Source: Hymenopellis radicata (taxonomy: Eukaryota; Basidiomycota; Agaricomycetes; Agaricales; Physalacriaceae). From it: a stretch of 64,000 nucleotides of DNA. Below the pieces are notes generated by a model. That model had not been told where the DNA came from. It saw only the letters and a program-made list of their open reading frames with translations, and searched no databases. Shown here in pieces: positions 43,992-61,638 of the stretch. The position numbers and the translations under genes are program-made. The DNA lies in NCBI GenBank assembly GCA_015501595.1, contig JADNRX010000232.1, forward strand, positions 23,813 to 87,812. Reading direction: 5' to 3'. The number at the start of each line of letters is the position of its first letter. Within the stretch, counting starts at the first letter, position 1.

Positions 43992-44074
43992 TGCCCTGTA
44001 CCCGGATTGAACGAATGACCTTCGCATGTTACATAATGTACAAGTGCGACGCGCTACCACTACGCCAACAGGGC
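43992..44074 (-). tRNA. tRNA-Thr (UGU) with intron
   Basis: Minus-strand cloverleaf: acceptor GCCCTGT pairs with ACAGGGC, discriminator A at 43992. The D arm is GGCGTAGTGGTAGCGC, the anticodon stem TCGCA/TGCGA and the T arm ATTCG-TTCAATC-CGGGT. The 18-base anticodon loop implies an 11-base intron at the usual position after base 37. The anticodon reads TGT, for threonine codon ACA. Mature length is 72. Confidence 0.85.
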
Positions 44075-52564: not shown

Positions 52565-52780
52565 GTTAAGGAAGACGAAACGAGGGATGTGGGAAACGGC
52601 GACAAATGTCCCTAGGATTTATAAACACGGTGAGGCCCTTACCTCACATCAGCCTCCTGAGGGATTATATCTTTCCGGACAGCTCGACTTCATCAATGCC
52701 CAGGCCAATTTGCGCACGCTAGCACGGTTCCTGGAATGTTGGATGTCTTCTGCTCAACAAGCGAGGCCAGCTGACCATGG

Positions 52781-53465
52781 GAACCCGCAACTCCATATGC
52801 GAAAACGGCATGTTTGGCCATGTTAGGATCAGACGTTTCCGCCCCGATCTCAGCAAAAACCTGGTTCCCATTTTACATCGGGTGTTCTGAGAGCGTCCCT
52901 CCACGAAATGCCCTGCCATTTGTTTTCTCGCAACTTTCTAGTGTATAGAACAACTTCTTGGTAGCATAATCCCCAGATATACTTATTTCGTGTCACACAA
53001 TGCTCGAACATTCAAGCTGTTTTTCAGTGAAATCCAGCCTGTGGTGGCAACTCCATGCTATAAAGCAGCCATTCCACTGCCTTCTGACTATTGTTTTACA
53101 GATATATGAATGCAAGTCTTGGTCTCACCAAATTTTGCGGTGATTGGTGGTCTCCATGGTTGGCTAGACATATCACGACAGCACCTCGACGCGTCAATTT
53201 GACATGAACCGGGCATTCGCCGTGTTATTGCTCAAGAACGGCTCCAAGAAATTGCCTGGAAGTTTGAATACCCAATACTGAGATGTGAAATCAAATTTTA
53301 GTGCAGCCAGAATCTGACTATATTCTCGACGTGGACTGCAGAAGAGGTGTATTCAGCGGAACACATATTTTCTATCTAGGCGCGCGCGCTCCTTCCTTAT
53401 CAAGTAAGATCGGGTAAAACTAACATGGCCAAACATGCCGTTTTCGCATATGGAGTTGCGGGTTC
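52781..53465. mobile_element. Inverted-repeat element with 46-bp perfect arms
   Basis: Bases 52781-52826 (GAACCCGCAACTCCATATGC...) are repeated exactly in reverse complement at 53420-53465. The 593-base interior has no recognisable gene. No convincing target duplication was seen, so it may be a MITE with a lost duplication, a foldback element, or an inverted duplication. Confidence 0.65.
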
Positions 53466-53565
53466 TCAGTCGGATTCCCGGTGACTCGATCGCCCGTCAC
53501 CGAGCCAAGTCACTCGGCACGCGATCGGCACATTCGAACTCCGCCACCAGCTGCCGCCGCCGCCG

Positions 53566-53660
53566 CCCGCGCGCGGGTAACCGACGTCGCGGTTCGGCTC
53601 GCTCGACGCGCGCGCCTCGGGTAACCGCCGCTTTCGCTGGCGCGGGTAACCGAGCCCCGC
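53566..53660. repeat. CGGGTAACCG repeats in CG-rich sequence
   Basis: GGGTAACCG occurs three times within about 90 bases of very CG-rich sequence (GCGCGCGGGTAACCGACG, CTCGGGTAACCGCCGC, GCGCGGGTAACCGAGC). The same motif with CCGCTTTCG recurs at about 60,745-60,790, on the far side of the Crypton-like gene. Confidence 0.6.
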
Positions 53661-53894
53661 TTCGTCACGCTTTCCGGATTCGGTCTTTGGGGGCGTGTCA
53701 GCCAGTCACACGTCTCGCTGGTGGCTGTGCAGTCGTTGGCTTTATTTCGACAGACCGGTGACGTCGTCTGTCAAAATCAGCCCAACGGCAGCACAGCCAC
53801 CATCCGTTGAATCTTTACTCACTCGTCAAATACGCGCCTGCGCCTCCGGTACATCGCGGCGGCGCGATGGCTTGAAATGATGTTCGATCTTTGA

Positions 53895-54709
53895 ATGATG
53901 AGCAGTCGCGAGAACGCACTGGAGCCGAATATCGAAAGCGCAGACGGCGGCAGCGATGATTTCGCGCTCTCATCTGCTGAAACGGCTCTTCTGCTGAGGG
54001 CGATAACTGCTGAGGAGGAGGAGGAGGAGGCCGCGGCAGCAGCGGACGCGACGACGGCTATGGCAGGGGCACTAACAAGGTGCGTTCATCGCTTGTTCTA
54101 ACTTGTAAAATGAGATTGATCACCATCCAAATCAGAAACAGTCCCACTCCTTCGCTTTCTCCCCTTCGACCTCGCTGGACATGCACCTGGTGCGGATGCG
54201 ATCTATCCTTCAAAACCGCATCGTTCTCCCAGTGGCCGAGACTTGATTGCCGAACTCATCAACCATCAACTCCTTTCCCGACTTCTCCGACATTTGTATC
54301 TGTCTGGGTTCTCAAGTGCGGCCACCTGCTCGACACTCACTGCGCATTGGCCATCCTCCTTCCAGATATTCGAGATATGCACGGTATTCATAAAGTTGCC
54401 TGTGAGCAGCAGATCGATCCCTCGACCGCCATCTGTGTCAAGAAGGTGTTCAACTGCAACTTCGCGAGATGCGGCAAGGCCTTCTCAATAGTTGCACGGG
54501 ATCCTAGCTTGGACATTGGGACTCGCAGTTTCTGTGCCATGGCGTGGCGGTTCGAATCGCTTCGCCCTTTCAGATGGACACATCAATACGGTACTATAGA
54601 CGACTTGTATGGAGGGGGTTACGATCTCATGGACCTCGTAACCATATTAGGAGAGTCGTTGTTGCACCCAAGACCGAATTTTTTGGCATCTCGATACTTT
54701 ATTCGATGA
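53895..54709 (+). CDS. Hypothetical Cys-rich protein, acidic/alanine-rich N-terminus
   Basis: Frame starting MMSSRENALEPNIESADGG at 53895 contains an E6-A5 low-complexity run, then an intron or break near 54,090. A second frame (54080-54709) has paired Cys/His (WTCTWCGCDL, KCGHLLDTHC, FNCNFARCGK) reminiscent of a zinc-binding domain, but the spacing fits no family I can name. Gene model and function uncertain. Confidence 0.35.
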
Positions 54710-55359
54710 ATTTAATTGTGTCTTTCTGTCTGTGCGAGATTCGACACATCGCGAGCCTTACTGTTCAACTGAGTGATCAAGATGTTTGTGAAGGTTACTA
54801 GTCAGGACCCTTCCAACTAGGAAAAGAGAGAGGGACTGAGAGAATGAGTTGAGAGAAGAGGCTAGTTGATGAGGTTGATTCAACCAGTTCTGTAGACTAG
54901 AGACACAGCTTGAATACTGTAGTGATATTTTTCTGAGTGAGGTAAGTCTTGATACTGTGAGGTGGGTCTAAGACTAGGAGAGTCGAGATGAGACGAAGCG
55001 AAATATAATAGTATCTTGTCGAAGAGGAAGTTCATATCCATAAACGGCAACATATTAAGCATTTGCCTGCTGCTCTGGATACATAAAAACTTGAGGATAC
55101 CATAACAAGATGTATCAGATGACCTATACCACACAATCTCTACTTAGAACACAGAGCCTCTTGTGCTGGAGTAGTATTGAACTAAACGAGAACATCACTT
55201 TCTTCCCTTACCTTATAAGGAAATTGTGCTGTGCGCGGACGACCATTCTCATTTCACAGAATTATCGACACCACTCTGACAGTTGAAGAACATGAGTGAG
55301 TATATTAAAATGTGTTGTAGGTAATCATTCAGACTTTGCCCGTCGAACATACATATTAA
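54710..55359. other. Gap downstream of Crypton-like gene
   Basis: About 650 A/T-rich bases without a recognisable gene. It includes the 3' flank of the Crypton-like gene. Confidence 0.4.
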
Positions 55360-56598
55360 CTAGGAAGCTAACTTTGCATTCTTTCGGGGACGAGCATCAA
55401 CTGCTTTCGCTCGCCTCCGCTTCTCTCCTGTTCTCGTCAACAGACCGCCATCTCCAGCATCTGATATCTCTTCACTCTGTCGACTGACCCTCTCCTTACG
55501 CTGCTTCTCGACAACTTGAACTAATTGATTCAAAGAAAGCAATGTCGACTTTCCGGGTTGCGTGCGCAGCGCCTCGAGCTCAGCCAGAACAACTGCTGGC
55601 AAAACTTGGCGGCTCCGAGTCTCTTCTTCGATCCACTGAGGAATCTCGCGGTAGCGTTTCCACTTCTGCTTATCACCCTGTTGAAACGTTAGAGTAGTAG
55701 TAGTATCAAGAAGAATATGAACATGCATTTCGTTGAGCGCGCCATTTGTGTGCGAAGCGCTGTTCAAGCAGCTTCAAAGGTGGACAAAGCATGTCGTTAT
55801 ACTCCTCTCCTTGCTCATAGGAATTCCATAGGGAAGACAGTGTGAAGTCGGCAAGACCTCGAGGCTGGTACAGCTCCCAGAGCAGAATGGGCTGCTTGAT
55901 CTGATTGAATATGTCCGACCACGCAAGGTTTCGTTGTCTAAGAATGGGCGGGAAAATGCGATAACTCGATCCGTCGTCTACTCATTGATGATCATTGATC
56001 AGTGCTCTGCTGAGATGTGTGATGCCAGAAAGACTTACTAGGGTTGTAGAACGCGTCAATCGGCGGGAGCAGCATCCTCACCGAATGCACTAATGGCGCC
56101 GATGTTGGGCTTCCTTCTGATACCCGCATGGGCTCAATCGAAATACGACTCGGACGCGGTGGTGTTGATGGTACTTTCTGAGAGTGTGGCAGAGAATCAA
56201 TTACCATCGCTGAATGGTCTGAGCGGGATGCGTTCTCGTGATATAGAGCATTTGAGAAGCCTTTCGAAGGTGATAGAAATGATGTGCGACGGTGAAAGCA
56301 TTCGCGAAGTTCTTGAAGCTCTCTTCTTTGCTTCTCCACCTCTTGGTGATGCAACGCGCGCTCAGTTCGATTTTCCTCCAATACGCGTCGCAAAACTTCG
56401 TCCTGGATGCGTTCGAGATTAACAGATTCACCCGCTTCCGCCTGGAGTCGTGCTAGCTTGACGGGAAACTCAACCTTCATCCATTCCTGAACCTCTGCAT
56501 TCTGAAATGCTGGGAGCCGAAAGATGGGTAATGTCGGCAGCTTCTGATAGATGACAGCGCCGACCTGGAAGAGGTACGGTCGAAGTGACATGACCATA

Positions 56599-56831
56599 CT
56601 GTAGACTTTCATTCAATTCGTCGGCCCATGTGACCTGTGACCGGTCCGACGAAATTATGGTTTCGACGAATTACCATATATAGTAATTGCCGCCGCGGTG
56701 GAGCTGCGGCGGGAGGCTGGCGGGGGCCCCGCCGGAGACTTTTTCGTGATTTTCGCTGTGACGGCTGTGACTTTTCGTCGATTTCGGATCGTCCGTGACC
56801 CGTGACCGACGAATTGAATTAAAGTGTACAG
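56599..56831. mobile_element. TA-flanked MITE C, inside the Crypton-like gene
   Basis: 233 bp with ends CTGTAGACTTTCATTCAATT and (reverse complement of right) CTGTACACTTTAATTCAATT, a 26-bp imperfect TIR, flanked by TA on both sides (56597-56598, 56832-56833). The TA target and CTG..CAG ends suggest a Tc1/mariner-type MITE. The interior is CG-rich and non-coding. Without it the host codons read FWHMVMSLRPY in frame. Confidence 0.82.
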
Positions 56832-57954
56832 TATGCCAAAAGTTAGTTGCTCCAATCAAGCCCGCCTTCTTCGCAGCTGACAAACACTCAGTCTCGCACT
56901 CAAATGGCTTCACAGATAAGTGAACGTACTTGAAACCTTATGATAGTTGTCTTTGGCCATAGGACAGACAAGCTTGAGAAATGCCTCGGGAACGGATATG
57001 CGGCGCCAGATAGGATTGTACTCGTCAGTAACTTGATACCCATGAGCACCAAGTACAGCCTTCAATAGTAACTATGAGTTGAGAAACGGAACAGTAACAT
57101 GGAACTCACCGCCTTGGGAAGTGCGGGGGCATAAACATCAAAGTACGTCCCACGCTTCCATCCCATCTTTGCGGTCTCATTTGAGTCGACACTAGTGTGA
57201 TATGAGGACGTATTAAGCATTGAGAACAGCAGTTCTTACCCCATCTGTTCCTGCTTGTACGGTAGAAGATGTCGGGCCAAATGTACCTTTGAGTGTAAGA
57301 CAACTTCAGCACGTTCAAGAGTGCCCTTGTAAAGGTTGTACATGCAGCTCTCGTTATACGGAATCGTTGGAGTGCTGGCATGTAGTACACGAACCTGACC
57401 AGATCAGATTAGACAATGCAGCATCATCAAATGAAGAAAGACGAAACTTACCTGACGCCAGTCACGGTTCCGAGTCCAATCAATCTCCATTTTATCACCG
57501 AGACGGTAATAGTCAAGTAAGTAATGTAGATAGATTGCAAGTGCGCCAAGTGGGCAGGACTCGGCATCGCGATGAGCGACAAATACAGTGTATACAGGAT
57601 TGATGCTCTGAGAACAGATGAGGTACTCGTAACTCGTGAATTGTGGATTAAGCTTACCGTTGACATGCCACGGTCACCCGCCTTCTCCTCGTTCTGCAAG
57701 CCGAGCACCGAAAATACCTGTGTTGACTTGTCTGGGTGTAGCCAGATGTACGGTTGCAGCTGTGCCAGTCGTAGAGACCGAAAGTCATCGCCACGATTGC
57801 CACTTGCGCGCTGGCACACCCATGACAGATGTCCGAACACTGTTATACGAACTATACTATGTTGGTACAAGTACGATGATAGTAGAAAGATGAAATTTTA
57901 CGTTCACGATGGCTGAGAAACGCACGGCTGATGCGTGAAAGTTGCTCATCAGTA

Positions 57955-58207
57955 CTGTATACTTTCGACCGGATGTTCGCCGGTCGTGATGCGTTATGCA
58001 ACGAACTTATATGAACTAAGTTCGTTGCCAGGCACAGAGCCCCGACTTACCGCATTTGGACGTCCCGCCGTAGGCGGGAGCGAAATTTTTACCGTTTTGG
58101 GCCATCTGACCCTGAAATTGAGGTCCGTGATGCGTTATGGAAGGGGATAAGTTCGGTTCAGAGGCCCGCGTGATGCGTTATTCGAATATGCGGTCGAAAG
58201 TATACAG
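57955..58207. mobile_element. TA-flanked MITE A, inside the Crypton-like gene
   Basis: 253 bp with a perfect 17-bp TIR CTGTATACTTTCGACCG and TA on each side (57953-57954, 58208-58209). The right TA is shared with MITE B. Interior repeats GTGATGCGTTAT three times. Non-coding. Confidence 0.8.
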
Positions 58208-58209
58208 TA

Positions 58210-58358
58210 CTGTCCTATTTCGACCGTAAGTTCACGTCACAGGTCACAAGGCCTCCAAATTTCCTTATCGGACACCGGAAAACGCCTCCGATCACTTATC
58301 GGGCGTGGGAAGGTCAAAAAATTCAAAATTTTGTGAACTTACGGTCGAAATACTACAG
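58210..58358. mobile_element. TA-flanked MITE B, abutting MITE A
   Basis: 149 bp with 26-bp TIRs, CTGTCCTATTTCGACCGTAA and (reverse complement of right) CTGTAGTATTTCGACCGTAA, differing at two positions. TA at 58208-58209 and 58359-58360. Same end family as A and C. Confidence 0.78.
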
Positions 58359-60799
58359 TAATCTGTTGAAGAAATGTGTTGGCGACGATGTCTTGATCAT
58401 CTTCTGCATTCGGATCTCCGTCGGCGCTGAAGGCTGATGAGTGACTCGTGAGATTCAAGTCGAGAGAACTGTACCTTAGAGTGGTGGTGGGCAATGGTCG
58501 GATCGAGCGTGAGCGCTTAGTAAGCCGGTTACTTTGAGTTACCGGCGATCCGATGGCAAACGCACTTCTCGACGTCGTTGGAGCTCCTTTCACCTCTCAG
58601 TTACTTAATTCTGCACAGAAACTCTGAAAATACCATTAATTTATATTTCTACTTCTTTGCGACTTGCTTGGATCCCTGGAACACGTCAAGAAACTACATC
58701 CCGAGCTTCAAGATCCATTTTGTCACGCTTTGTCACACTGATCGGCGCGTCGCGTACATGATTCTTGAGGTGCATATATTGGAGGATGCAGGTCATATAT
58801 CACGTCGAAAAATACATACTCAGAACTTTGGATACTGAGAGCATACAATGCCCAATGGATTTTATTTTATCTTTAACTGATCCTGAGATCCTTTCGGTAC
58901 ATCAAGCAAGACAATAAGCTATTTATTGTCCCATTGGGCAAAGGATGTAAATACTCAAACAAAACAACTTTCTCTCCCACAGTTTGACTCTCGGGCACTG
59001 TGGAAGCTAATAAATGCACGTCCGTCAGCGCAAAGGATTCTCGCAGAGGGACCAAGGTAGCCAAACAACACCAAAGTCCTCCAGCCAAGTCGACGATTGC
59101 CCACCACCACTTAGAGTCCGCTTCAGGGCCTCACGCATGCGGGACTTGACGGCATCATAGACGATAGTTGTCGCAGCAGAGCGCTTGGCGGCAAGTGTTC
59201 GGTCATCGGCTTCCTGCAGCTTTCGAAGTCGCAAAGCCGCAAAGAAGAGTTTCTTGATTTGTGACTAGACAAAAGTCAGCAATAAGATCTATCAGCGAGA
59301 TGACTTAACTTACAGCACCAAGTCGCGTGTCAGGTATGAAGTTTCTCCTTCGGTCGCGCTTCGGACGGAGTGCAGAGTATCGAATAAAGAGCAACAGCGA
59401 GTGTTCATCAACAATCTTGTCCTTGATTTCACCGGCCAGAAGTGCGCTGGCACACCATTCCTATCAGAAGTATTAGCATTACGATGTTGAGAATCGAGAG
59501 CTGTTTACTTACATCCCAGGCCCGAACTAACGAAGCCTGAGTCTTCTTTCCGCCAGGTCGTCGATTCTGATCGGCGTGACCAGCCGCCTCCACTCGAGTC
59601 CGCTTGGTGAATGCCGCATACTCGTCTGAATGGGAATAGATATCAGGGAAGGTTAGAAATTCTGCATAAGGAAAGAACTTACCGGGATCGTTCAAATCAC
59701 CTTCGACATCGTCGAATTCATCATCGCCGCCATCAGGAACGGCATCGTCCATACCCAACAGCTCATCCATGCTTGCCGTCGTGACAGCAGAGCGGGCGGG
59801 ACTGAATGATTGAAGGAGCCGGTAATCTGAGTCTTCGTCGTCATCGTGAAATCGCAAGTCGGCGTCAGCCACATTGTCGTCCTCGTCTTCATCGAGACCT
59901 TCAAAGTGGACGACGTCCTCCGTAGCTATACTTGAAAATGATGGAGCGATGGAGGGAGAGCTGAATAGATTATCGTCAGAAGAGGAACAGGATCCGGAGT
60001 GGGTTGTGTCTGCAGGAAAGAGTTGACGCGCGACTGAATCAACACGTCGCGTATTCGGGGATAGATCGTTCACGGAACGCGAAGATTGAAGGGGTGCAGA
60101 CGTAGGACATGGTGTTGATGGCATACTTGAGACCGTTTCCAGCTCGAGAGAATGCCTAATATTAAGAATATAAGAAGTCGTTATAAAGAGTCAGATCCAA
60201 AAGTACGCACCAGTTCTCCAACAATGCATCGGTCAACTTTCTCATGGACCACGACTTCGCATAACGAATCTTCCGGCGCTCGCATTCGTTTCGAAGTGGA
60301 GCTTTAGTCCGAAATGTGTGTCTGCGACGCTGTTAGAAAAGAAAGCCAAGTCAGAAAAAGAGTACGTGCTTACAATTTGGCGGCATAACGTGCTTTATCC
60401 GGTGTTCCTGCAAGTGTGTCGTGTTCGAGCGTGCCCACGCTGTTGTTCTGCACCTGGCTTGCGGCCCTTGACGCGTGAATAGTCGAGGGTGGACGCGGTC
60501 CCGAGGGCACCTGGGAAAGGCGAGCTGATTCGCCAGCGCTAACTCCATCTGCCCGGAGCCTCGGATCAATGTGGGAGTCGTCCGTTGTTGGCATTAAAAT
60601 GATGAGAGTAAATAAAATATAAGATAAAAAAGATGTAGAGTACGGGATGGCCAAGAAAGACGTTGAAAGAGAGGATCCCCGAGGCGGACAATGGGCGTGG
60701 TTGTGGGGGTGGGGAGCGATGAGGGAGGGCACTCATTGGGTAACTGAGCTCGGTTACCTGCCGCTTTCGGCGCGGGGCGGGTAACCGAGACTCAGTTTA

Positions 60800-61208
60800 G
60801 AGCCTGTTCGGCAACCTGATATTCAGGAGGGTGATTTCGCGAAATCATGATATTGGCTGATTTCGGGTGATTTCGGACTGTCACGATGGGATATCGGCAC
60901 ACCGGCTCATGAACTCCCACGCCCCTATTTTCAGTTCTGTGAGCGCCGCATCTGCCAGTGCACCAACATTCCTCGTTCAAAAGCGCATAGTAGGGGGCGA
61001 CACCATTTCTATTGTATTTTGCCCCCACAATATCTATTATAATGGGTGTACACCGGAGAAAATGACGCGAATGTTCAGCTGAGGTCAGCGATAACGACAC
61101 GCAAGTCACACAACGTCACAAGTTCGGGGTTCCCCGAAATCACCCAAAATCAGCCAATATCATGATTTCGCGAAATCACCCTCCAATATCAGGTTGCCGA
61201 ACAGGCTC
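60800..61208. mobile_element. PIF/Harbinger-like MITE (409 bp)
   Basis: Long terminal inverted repeats of about 75 bases start GAGCCTGTTCGGCAACCTGA on both ends, with a few differences. They are flanked by the 3-bp target TTA (60797-60799, 61209-61211), the hallmark of PIF/Harbinger. The arms contain the self-complementary GATTTCGCGAAATC. No transposase. Confidence 0.88.
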
Positions 61209-61211
61209 TTA

Positions 61212-61638
61212 CCTGCCGATTGAGAGTCCCGCTGGGGTCTCCACGTTCCCACCAGTGACCAGTCAAAAGAGGTGCGCTCCACGCTTTGATTGCCGAAATA
61301 TTTCTGATTATCTGTGAGAGGTGTTACTTACGTGTAAGTATTGGTGAGAAGTAAACGAGGCTAACGAGGGCTGCATACCTTATCTTGTTGGATGGTGATA
61401 AGTGCTGGGTACGTGGTTGTTGTCTTATGTGTGGCGAGGTTGAAAAGTAGGGATCCCGGCTTCCGATCAAATGTATCCAATAACACGTTGGGCATGCAAA
61501 AGAGCACACTGCAAGAAAGCAAACGAAAAAAAACTACTCTGAGTATCCTACGTCTGGCGTAGGACAGTCCTTCTCTACAATACATCGTCCTCGATGGTAT
61601 ACACAACTATACAACAATAATTGTCATGGTCCGAATTC
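61212..61638. other. Gap between Harbinger MITE and membrane protein gene
   Basis: About 430 bases, no gene recognised. It includes the downstream flank of the minus-strand membrane protein gene. Confidence 0.4.

What the first reader, a model, noticed from the sequence alone, without database searches (positions are those of the whole stretch)
55360..60594. Crypton-type recombinase gene interrupted by three related TA-flanked MITEs
Conserved protein blocks are separated by inserts with TIRs starting CTGTA and TA on both sides; removing each insert rejoins the flanking codons in frame (QIT-DEQLSRIS and FWH-MVMSLRPY). This orders events clearly: Crypton first, MITEs later. It shows a tyrosine-recombinase element used as a target by cut-and-paste MITEs.
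Basis: partly seen in the sequence, partly recalled or inferred. Interest (0 to 1): 0.75.

Follow-up and report, generated by a model that had tools for sequence, protein, structure and literature searches.

The report
Mushroom Crypton broken by younger transposons
In the mushroom Hymenopellis radicata a jumping gene that moves with a tyrosine recombinase was hit by five smaller jumping elements, and an almost identical copy elsewhere in the same genome without those hits shows the order of events; each kind of element is of an already known type.

Summary
Confirmed and extended. The minus-strand gene (60594-55360) encodes a Crypton tyrosine recombinase (NDC10_II, GCR1_C, catalytic positions kept). 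MITE A (56599-56831) and MITEs B and C side by side (57955-58207, 58210-58358) interrupt it at TA. A second copy on contig C918 (31 substitutions in about 6.1 kb) lacks all five, and carries its own MITE C at a TA that is empty in the window. So the Crypton came first; the inserts followed after the two copies separated. Crypton ends were found: GTTC at three left and three right junctions, with paralogous empty sites for both full copies; the window copy sits in the terminal repeat of an older TIR element. A second gene (53895-54709, +) belongs to the element and shows purifying selection against the C1137 copy. The autonomous source of the TA MITEs was not found; Tc1/mariner is unproven. The public gene model reads the inserts as introns; no cDNA was available, so splicing is unlikely but not excluded.

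The parts
53462..61248 (-). Crypton element, GTTC to GTTC, about 6.1 kb without the later inserts
   Evidence: Homology with C918 begins and ends here; GTTC at 3 left and 3 right junctions
55360..60594 (-). Tyrosine recombinase gene, 15 exons and 14 introns of 48-62 nt, open apart from the inserts
   Evidence: Exons, first acceptor moved so that exon 2 starts at 60321 and one intron added at 58427-58474 (read and P0002); NDC10_II and GCR1_C
56599..56831 (.). MITE A, 233 bp, TA on both sides (56597-56598, 56832-56833)
   Evidence: Absent from C918; 8 of 8 other copies cut out are TA-flanked
57955..58207 (.). MITE B, 253 bp, TA on both sides
   Evidence: Absent from C918; 8 of 8 other copies cut out are TA-flanked
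58210..58358 (.). MITE C, 149 bp, shares the TA at 58208-58209 with B
   Evidence: Absent from this place in C918, which has another C copy elsewhere; 11 of 11 other copies read are TA-flanked
58483..59109 (.). hAT-like non-autonomous element, 627 bp, TIR GGTGGTGGGCAAT, TSD CTTAGAGT (58475-58482, 59110-59117)
   Evidence: Absent from C918; 98% copy on C520 with TSD CTGCATCT, and three partial matches at 76-80%
60800..61208 (.). PIF/Harbinger-like MITE, 409 bp, TTA on both sides, upstream of the gene
   Evidence: Inverted repeats I1 and I2; absent from C918, C554 and C1137; 82% copy on C724
55098..55100 (.). Empty TA site at which the C918 copy carries its own MITE C
   Evidence: also empty in C1137
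53895..54709 (+). Second gene of the element, exons 53895-54079 and 54136-54709, 252 aa, RING-like CGHLLDTHC motif (motif recalled)
   Evidence: Present in C918 (with a one-base gap) and C1137; dN/dS 0.255 against C1137; homologues only in three H. radicata contigs
53462..53465 (.). GTTC, left border
61245..61248 (.). GTTC, right border
53571..53653 (+). Subterminal GGGTAACCG repeats at the left end, candidate recombinase sites
   Evidence: D1; function inferred
60749..60789 (+). Subterminal inverted repeat CTCGGTTACC/GGTAACCGAG at the right end, candidate recombinase site
   Evidence: I25; function inferred
52778..53465 (.). Older TIR element (TGGGAACCCGCAAC) that received the Crypton; its last bases GTTCCCA lie beyond the Crypton at 61245-61251
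   Evidence: I1; 5 of 5 other copies read end GCGGGTTCCCA

Best explanation
The window holds a three-layer nest. An older TIR element (52778 onward) was the landing site of a Crypton, a DNA transposon moved by its own tyrosine recombinase, which recombined at GTTC in that element's terminal repeat (borders shown; circular intermediate and GTTC as the exchange core inferred from the Crypton model). A near-identical copy sits at another GTTC on contig C918. After these two copies separated, the window copy took five insertions from three other cut-and-paste systems: three TA-target MITEs (A, B, C), one hAT-like element and one PIF-like MITE. The four within the gene break the recombinase reading frame, so this copy most likely no longer makes the enzyme (inferred).
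For: C918 copy has every insertion site empty, at base resolution. 31 substitutions in about 6.1 kb separate the copies (counted), while their flanks differ. GTTC at 3 of 3 left (C555, C918, C25) and 3 of 3 right junctions (C555, C918, C554) that were readable to the border. Empty sites: 5 of 5 other copies of the carrier element that were read end GCGG-GTTC-CCA, and C113 and C632 carry paralogues (72%) of the C918 site without an insert. Recombinase family, residues and fold. Purifying selection on the recombinase core against C554: dN/dS 0.076 over 180 codons; C-terminal exons against C1137: 0.327. MITE TSDs: A 8 of 8, B 8 of 8, C 11 of 11 other copies read.
Against: The annotated model of the window gene (P0001) treats the inserts as introns. 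The C918 copy, as assembled, has five single-base deletions in recombinase exons, so it is not a proven working copy; all five lie in runs of two or three like bases, so assembly error is possible. C1137 has lost the middle of the gene and has one stop in the part compared, and C554 has H at one of the two candidate first arginines. The carrier element lacks a clean 7-bp TSD here (3 of 5 other copies have one). C1137 has a changed right end and C59 begins inside the left end.
Confidence: 0.93

Rival explanations
1. The inserts are spliced as introns (introner-like MITEs), so the gene still makes protein.
For: Public model P0001 splices them: the donor CGACC|GTAAGT lies in the MITE C end and the acceptor TACAG| is the MITE B end; for A the donor is inside the MITE and the acceptor is its TACAG end (one search read by hand against the window sequence). 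MITE C carries GTAAGTTCAC inward of both ends. At 2 of 15 other A and B insertion sites the rejoined site lies in a long open stretch (L014, 193 aa; L024, 342 aa).
Against: The model is a prediction. The 14 ordinary introns are 48-62 nt, whereas the modelled ones would be about 208 (A), 388 (C+B) and 670 nt (hAT-like), counted by hand. Splicing at the outermost GT..AG leaves 4 extra bases and shifts the frame. At the same 15 sites the open stretch across the rejoined site was above the 90th percentile of positions in its own flanks in 0 and equal to it in 2 (a weak test, since the control lies in the same loci). Sister copies lack the inserts.
Confidence: 0.06
2. C918 and C555 are two alleles or a segmental duplication rather than two Crypton insertions.
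For: 98.8-100% identity in the five aligned pieces of the element.
Against: Identity stops at GTTC on both sides; the flanks have paralogues elsewhere that run through the site; a third left border on C25 and a third right border on C554 have yet other flanks.
Confidence: 0.03
3. The inserts were in the common ancestor and were lost precisely from C918.
For: Precise excision occurs for some elements (established knowledge, not tested here).
Against: It would need precise loss at four sites (five elements), with one TSD removed each time; C554 also lacks B, C, the hAT-like and the PIF-like insert, and C1137 lacks the hAT-like and PIF-like inserts.
Confidence: 0.02

Closest known systems
CryptonF (Kojima and Jurka 2011, PMC3212892; abstract and sections 3, 5 and 6 read)
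   Same: Tyrosine recombinase with GCR1_C domain, no terminal inverted repeats seen, short direct repeats at both ends (paper: 4 or 6 bp; here GTTC)
   Different: Carries a second, opposite-strand gene with a RING-like motif; their Table 1 lists only Cryptococcus among Basidiomycota, and this is an Agaricales element
Ndc10 of budding yeast (PDB 4aco)
   Different: The paper above says the catalytic site of Cbf2/Ndc10 is not preserved; here the positions are kept
TA-target MITEs such as Stowaway / Tc1-mariner derivatives (recalled)
   Same: Short, non-coding, TIRs, TA duplication
   Different: TIR CTGTA; no autonomous partner found
PlavakaA, PHISTA and ESTA lineages (PMC12730594, passages read)
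   Same: Fungal lineages with 2-bp or TA target duplications
   Different: PlavakaA ends are given as TGT..ACA, here CTGT..ACAG; none of the 6 Plavaka and 6 DDE_Tnp_4 loci cut out had these TIRs
Introners (PMC9860276, search listing only)
   Same: Element copies landing in genes, with splice-like ends in MITE C
   Different: No evidence of splicing here

Membership tests
CryptonF | Tyrosine recombinase with the R-H-R-Y catalytic residues | tested here: met
   In 30 aligned proteins, the window's and C918's own models among them: R396 28, K433 29, H531 30, R534 30, W556 28, Y565 29 (numbering of P0002). R401 is 30 of 30; which of R396 and R401 is the first catalytic arginine was not settled, and C554 has H at R396. 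The roles of these positions are recalled knowledge of the family.
CryptonF | GCR1_C DNA-binding domain | tested here: met
   P0002 23.3 bits against cut-off 23; P0003 32.2. The window piece alone scored 22.6, just under; likewise NDC10_II 22.6 against 26.3 for the window piece and 43.2 for P0002.
CryptonF | Short direct repeats at both ends, no TIRs | tested here: met
   GTTC at 3 left and 3 right junctions; the end sequences printed are not inverted copies of each other (by eye).
CryptonF | Mobile: several copies at unrelated places with empty sites | tested here: met
   Copies on C555, C918, C554, C1137; further left end on C25; paralogous empty sites.
CryptonF | Groups with CryptonF in a recombinase tree | not tested
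   No reference Crypton sequences were fetched.
CryptonF | Excision as a circle and integration by the encoded enzyme | not testable with these tools
   Needs experiment.
Tc1/mariner MITE (A, B, C) | TIRs and TA target duplication, short | tested here: met
Tc1/mariner MITE (A, B, C) | Shares TIRs with an autonomous Tc1/mariner element | tested here: inconclusive
   13 DDE_3 matches with 1.5 kb on each side: no such element; the assembly may miss it, pogo-type transposases were not searched, and other TA-target superfamilies were only partly tested.
hAT (58483-59109) | 8-bp target duplication and hAT-type TIR | tested here: met
   CTTAGAGT here, CTGCATCT on C520; the transposase was not sought, and the TIR likeness to hAT is recalled.
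PIF/Harbinger MITE (60800-61208) | 3-bp TWA target duplication | tested here: met
   TTA on both sides against one TTA in C918, with one T differing next to it; the TWA rule is recalled.
Introner | Spliced as an intron | not testable with these tools
   No transcript data.

The most novel reading that the evidence does not exclude
MITE C is a ready-made intron: it carries GTAAGT 16 nt in from its ends and ACAG at its end, so that splicing would leave 18 nt (with the TA), a multiple of three (one of the three frames of the CTGTAG version meets a stop). The window gene could then still be expressed despite the inserts, and this MITE class would be an introner in a mushroom.
Probability: 0.06. 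Interest if true: 0.7.

Novelty: new member of a known kind. Interest (0 to 1): 0.36.

Why it matters
It gives a mushroom Crypton with defined ends, a 4-bp exchange sequence, empty target sites and a near-identical sister copy, which makes both the recombinase reaction and the timing of MITE activity testable. A paper search for Crypton with Agaricomycetes and tyrosine recombinase returned 0 papers in the held library. It also shows that a public gene model has built transposon sequence into a predicted protein.

Tried and rejected
An autonomous source of the TA MITEs was sought and not found: DDE_3 (13 matches, all cut out with 1.5 kb on each side; L041 holds two MITE-like pairs next to a DDE_3 match but not around it, and L045 one unpaired TIR-like site); Plavaka (73 matches, 6 cut out, 2 of those widened to 7.5-8 kb) and DDE_Tnp_4 (18 matches, 6 cut out; L080 has one loose unpaired site). 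Pogo-type transposases were not searched. The first genome pattern search was too loose to be of use.

Exon preference of the MITEs was tested on 15 A and B sites that happened to be cut out (best-scoring copies, not a random sample): 0 of 15 above the 90th percentile of their own flanks, 2 equal to it. The test is weak.

A sequence search of the PDB with the alignment gave one match, at E 0.62 to an unrelated protein; the fold search found recombinases. The predicted model has mean pLDDT 68 and pTM 0.44, and the stretch holding the catalytic tyrosine (556-566) is below 50, so the fold match supports the core, not the active-site geometry.

Substitution count: I dropped the rows outside 53462-61248 and the rows at 55100, 58476 and 60797, which come from how the inserts were cut; 31 substitutions remain, 29 of them transitions (tally of that list). 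Gaps kept apart: one of 3 bases, one single base in the second gene, five single bases in recombinase exons and one in an intron, all missing from C918.

One search also printed a comparison in a wrong frame for the C554 stretch (ratio 2.4); the coding frame is the one that reads DEQLSRIS.

Excess of MITEs in the Crypton: with about 400 copies of the B/C class genome-wide, 0.065 are expected in two element copies and 3 are seen, P about 4e-5. I do not lean on this, because the locus was chosen for having inserts and B and C are neighbours.
Full report
What is there. The window is G000:C555:23813-87812 of a 75.5-Mb genome. Protein records whose contigs have the lengths of C555 and C918 (87,812 and 199,623 bases) are named Hymenopellis radicata, an agaric of the family Physalacriaceae. 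The gene runs on the minus strand from 60594 to 55360. Apart from the inserts it is open in every exon. One intron was added after comparison with the sister protein: 58427-58474, directly beside the hAT-like insert.

Inserts. A (233 bp), B (253 bp) and C (149 bp) have ends CTGT...ACAG and stand between TAs; B and C share one TA. A fourth insert of 627 bp (58483-59109) has an 8-bp duplication CTTAGAGT; its 98% copy on C520 has its own 8-bp duplication. A fifth, a 409-bp MITE with TTA, lies upstream at 60800-61208. The copy on contig C918 is 98.8-100% identical in its five aligned pieces and has each of these sites empty, while carrying its own MITE C at a TA that is empty in the window. Two older copies, C554 (82-89%) and C1137 (77-91%), lack the inserts at the sites they still hold: C554 covers the hAT-like, B/C and PIF sites, C1137 the hAT-like and PIF sites. 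Neither tells about A: C554 stops short of it at a contig end and C1137 has lost that part.

The MITE class. TACTGTNNNNTTTCGACCG occurs 393 times forward and 410 reverse in the genome, control 0, so roughly 400 elements with B- or C-type ends. The matches listed for A, B and C are mostly 93-100% alike, with two at 80% and 74%; these lists are capped at the best candidates. All copies read are TA-flanked: A 8 of 8, B 8 of 8, C 11 of 11. These were best-scoring copies, not a random sample.

Ends and target. Homology between C555 and C918 begins at GTTCTCAGTCGG and ends at CTCCACGTTC; outside, the flanks differ. A third left end (C25, 81%) and a third right end (C554) have the same borders with other flanks. 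The left flank of the window copy is the end of a TIR element; 5 of 5 other copies read continue GCGG-GTTC-CCA, which is the sequence obtained by leaving the Crypton out. The 7-bp duplication of that TIR element is exact in 3 of those 5 copies and not clean in the window. Paralogues of the C918 site on C113 and C632 (72%) run through without it. C1137 has a changed right end and C59 starts inside the left end. GGTAACC-type repeats lie near both ends; that they bind the recombinase is inferred.

Second gene. 53895-54709 on the plus strand, two exons, 252 aa, is shared by C555, C918 (one single-base gap) and C1137. Against C1137 it has dN/dS 0.255 (17 synonymous, 15 other changes). A search found only three proteins, all from these contigs, and Pfam gave nothing above cut-off. 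The RING-like reading of CGHLLDTHC is recalled.

Mechanism. Shown: insertion at GTTC with GTTC at both borders; recombinase with catalytic positions kept; inserts later than the copy separation. Inferred: circle intermediate and GTTC as the exchange core, by the model in PMC3212892 (sections 3, 5, 6 read); loss of function of the window copy.

Introns? The public model P0001 removes the inserts with splice sites partly inside the MITEs and so keeps short MITE-derived peptides. Insert length, frame arithmetic and sister copies speak against real splicing, but no transcript was available. Of 15 other A and B sites, two (L014, L024) lie in long open stretches, so some insertions in genes are possible.

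Novelty. Nested elements are common. New here, as far as the held library shows (searches; listings only), are the defined ends and empty sites of an Agaricales Crypton and its second gene. I read the abstract and three sections of PMC3212892 and passages of PMC12730594; the other papers were seen as listings.

Noticed in passing
P0028, P0040, P0041, P0051, P0056, P0060, P0067: Seven of 72 recombinase homologues in other agarics are annotated with an XPG-I nuclease domain (PF00867) in the same protein; fusion or annotation artefact is open.
   Followed up: no
window 53719-53802: An imperfect hairpin of two 37-nt arms in the left part of the Crypton; pieces of it recur at several other places in the genome, so it may be a small foldback element.
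   Followed up: no
window 52778-53465 and copies on C1077, C1073, C666, C558, C931: TIR element TGGGAACCCGCAAC; 3 of the 5 other copies read have an exact 7-bp target duplication.
   Followed up: partly
L027; G000:C496:91870-92332; window 58207-58210: MITEs of this class sit side by side sharing one TA at more than one place, as if a neighbouring end were a favoured target.
   Followed up: no
L024: A copy of MITE A lies in a 342-aa open stretch, perhaps another interrupted gene.
   Followed up: no
L029 1309-7547: The C918 copy lacks single bases at several short runs of like bases relative to the window; decay or assembly error.
   Followed up: partly
window 43992-44074: tRNA gene on the minus strand.
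   Followed up: no
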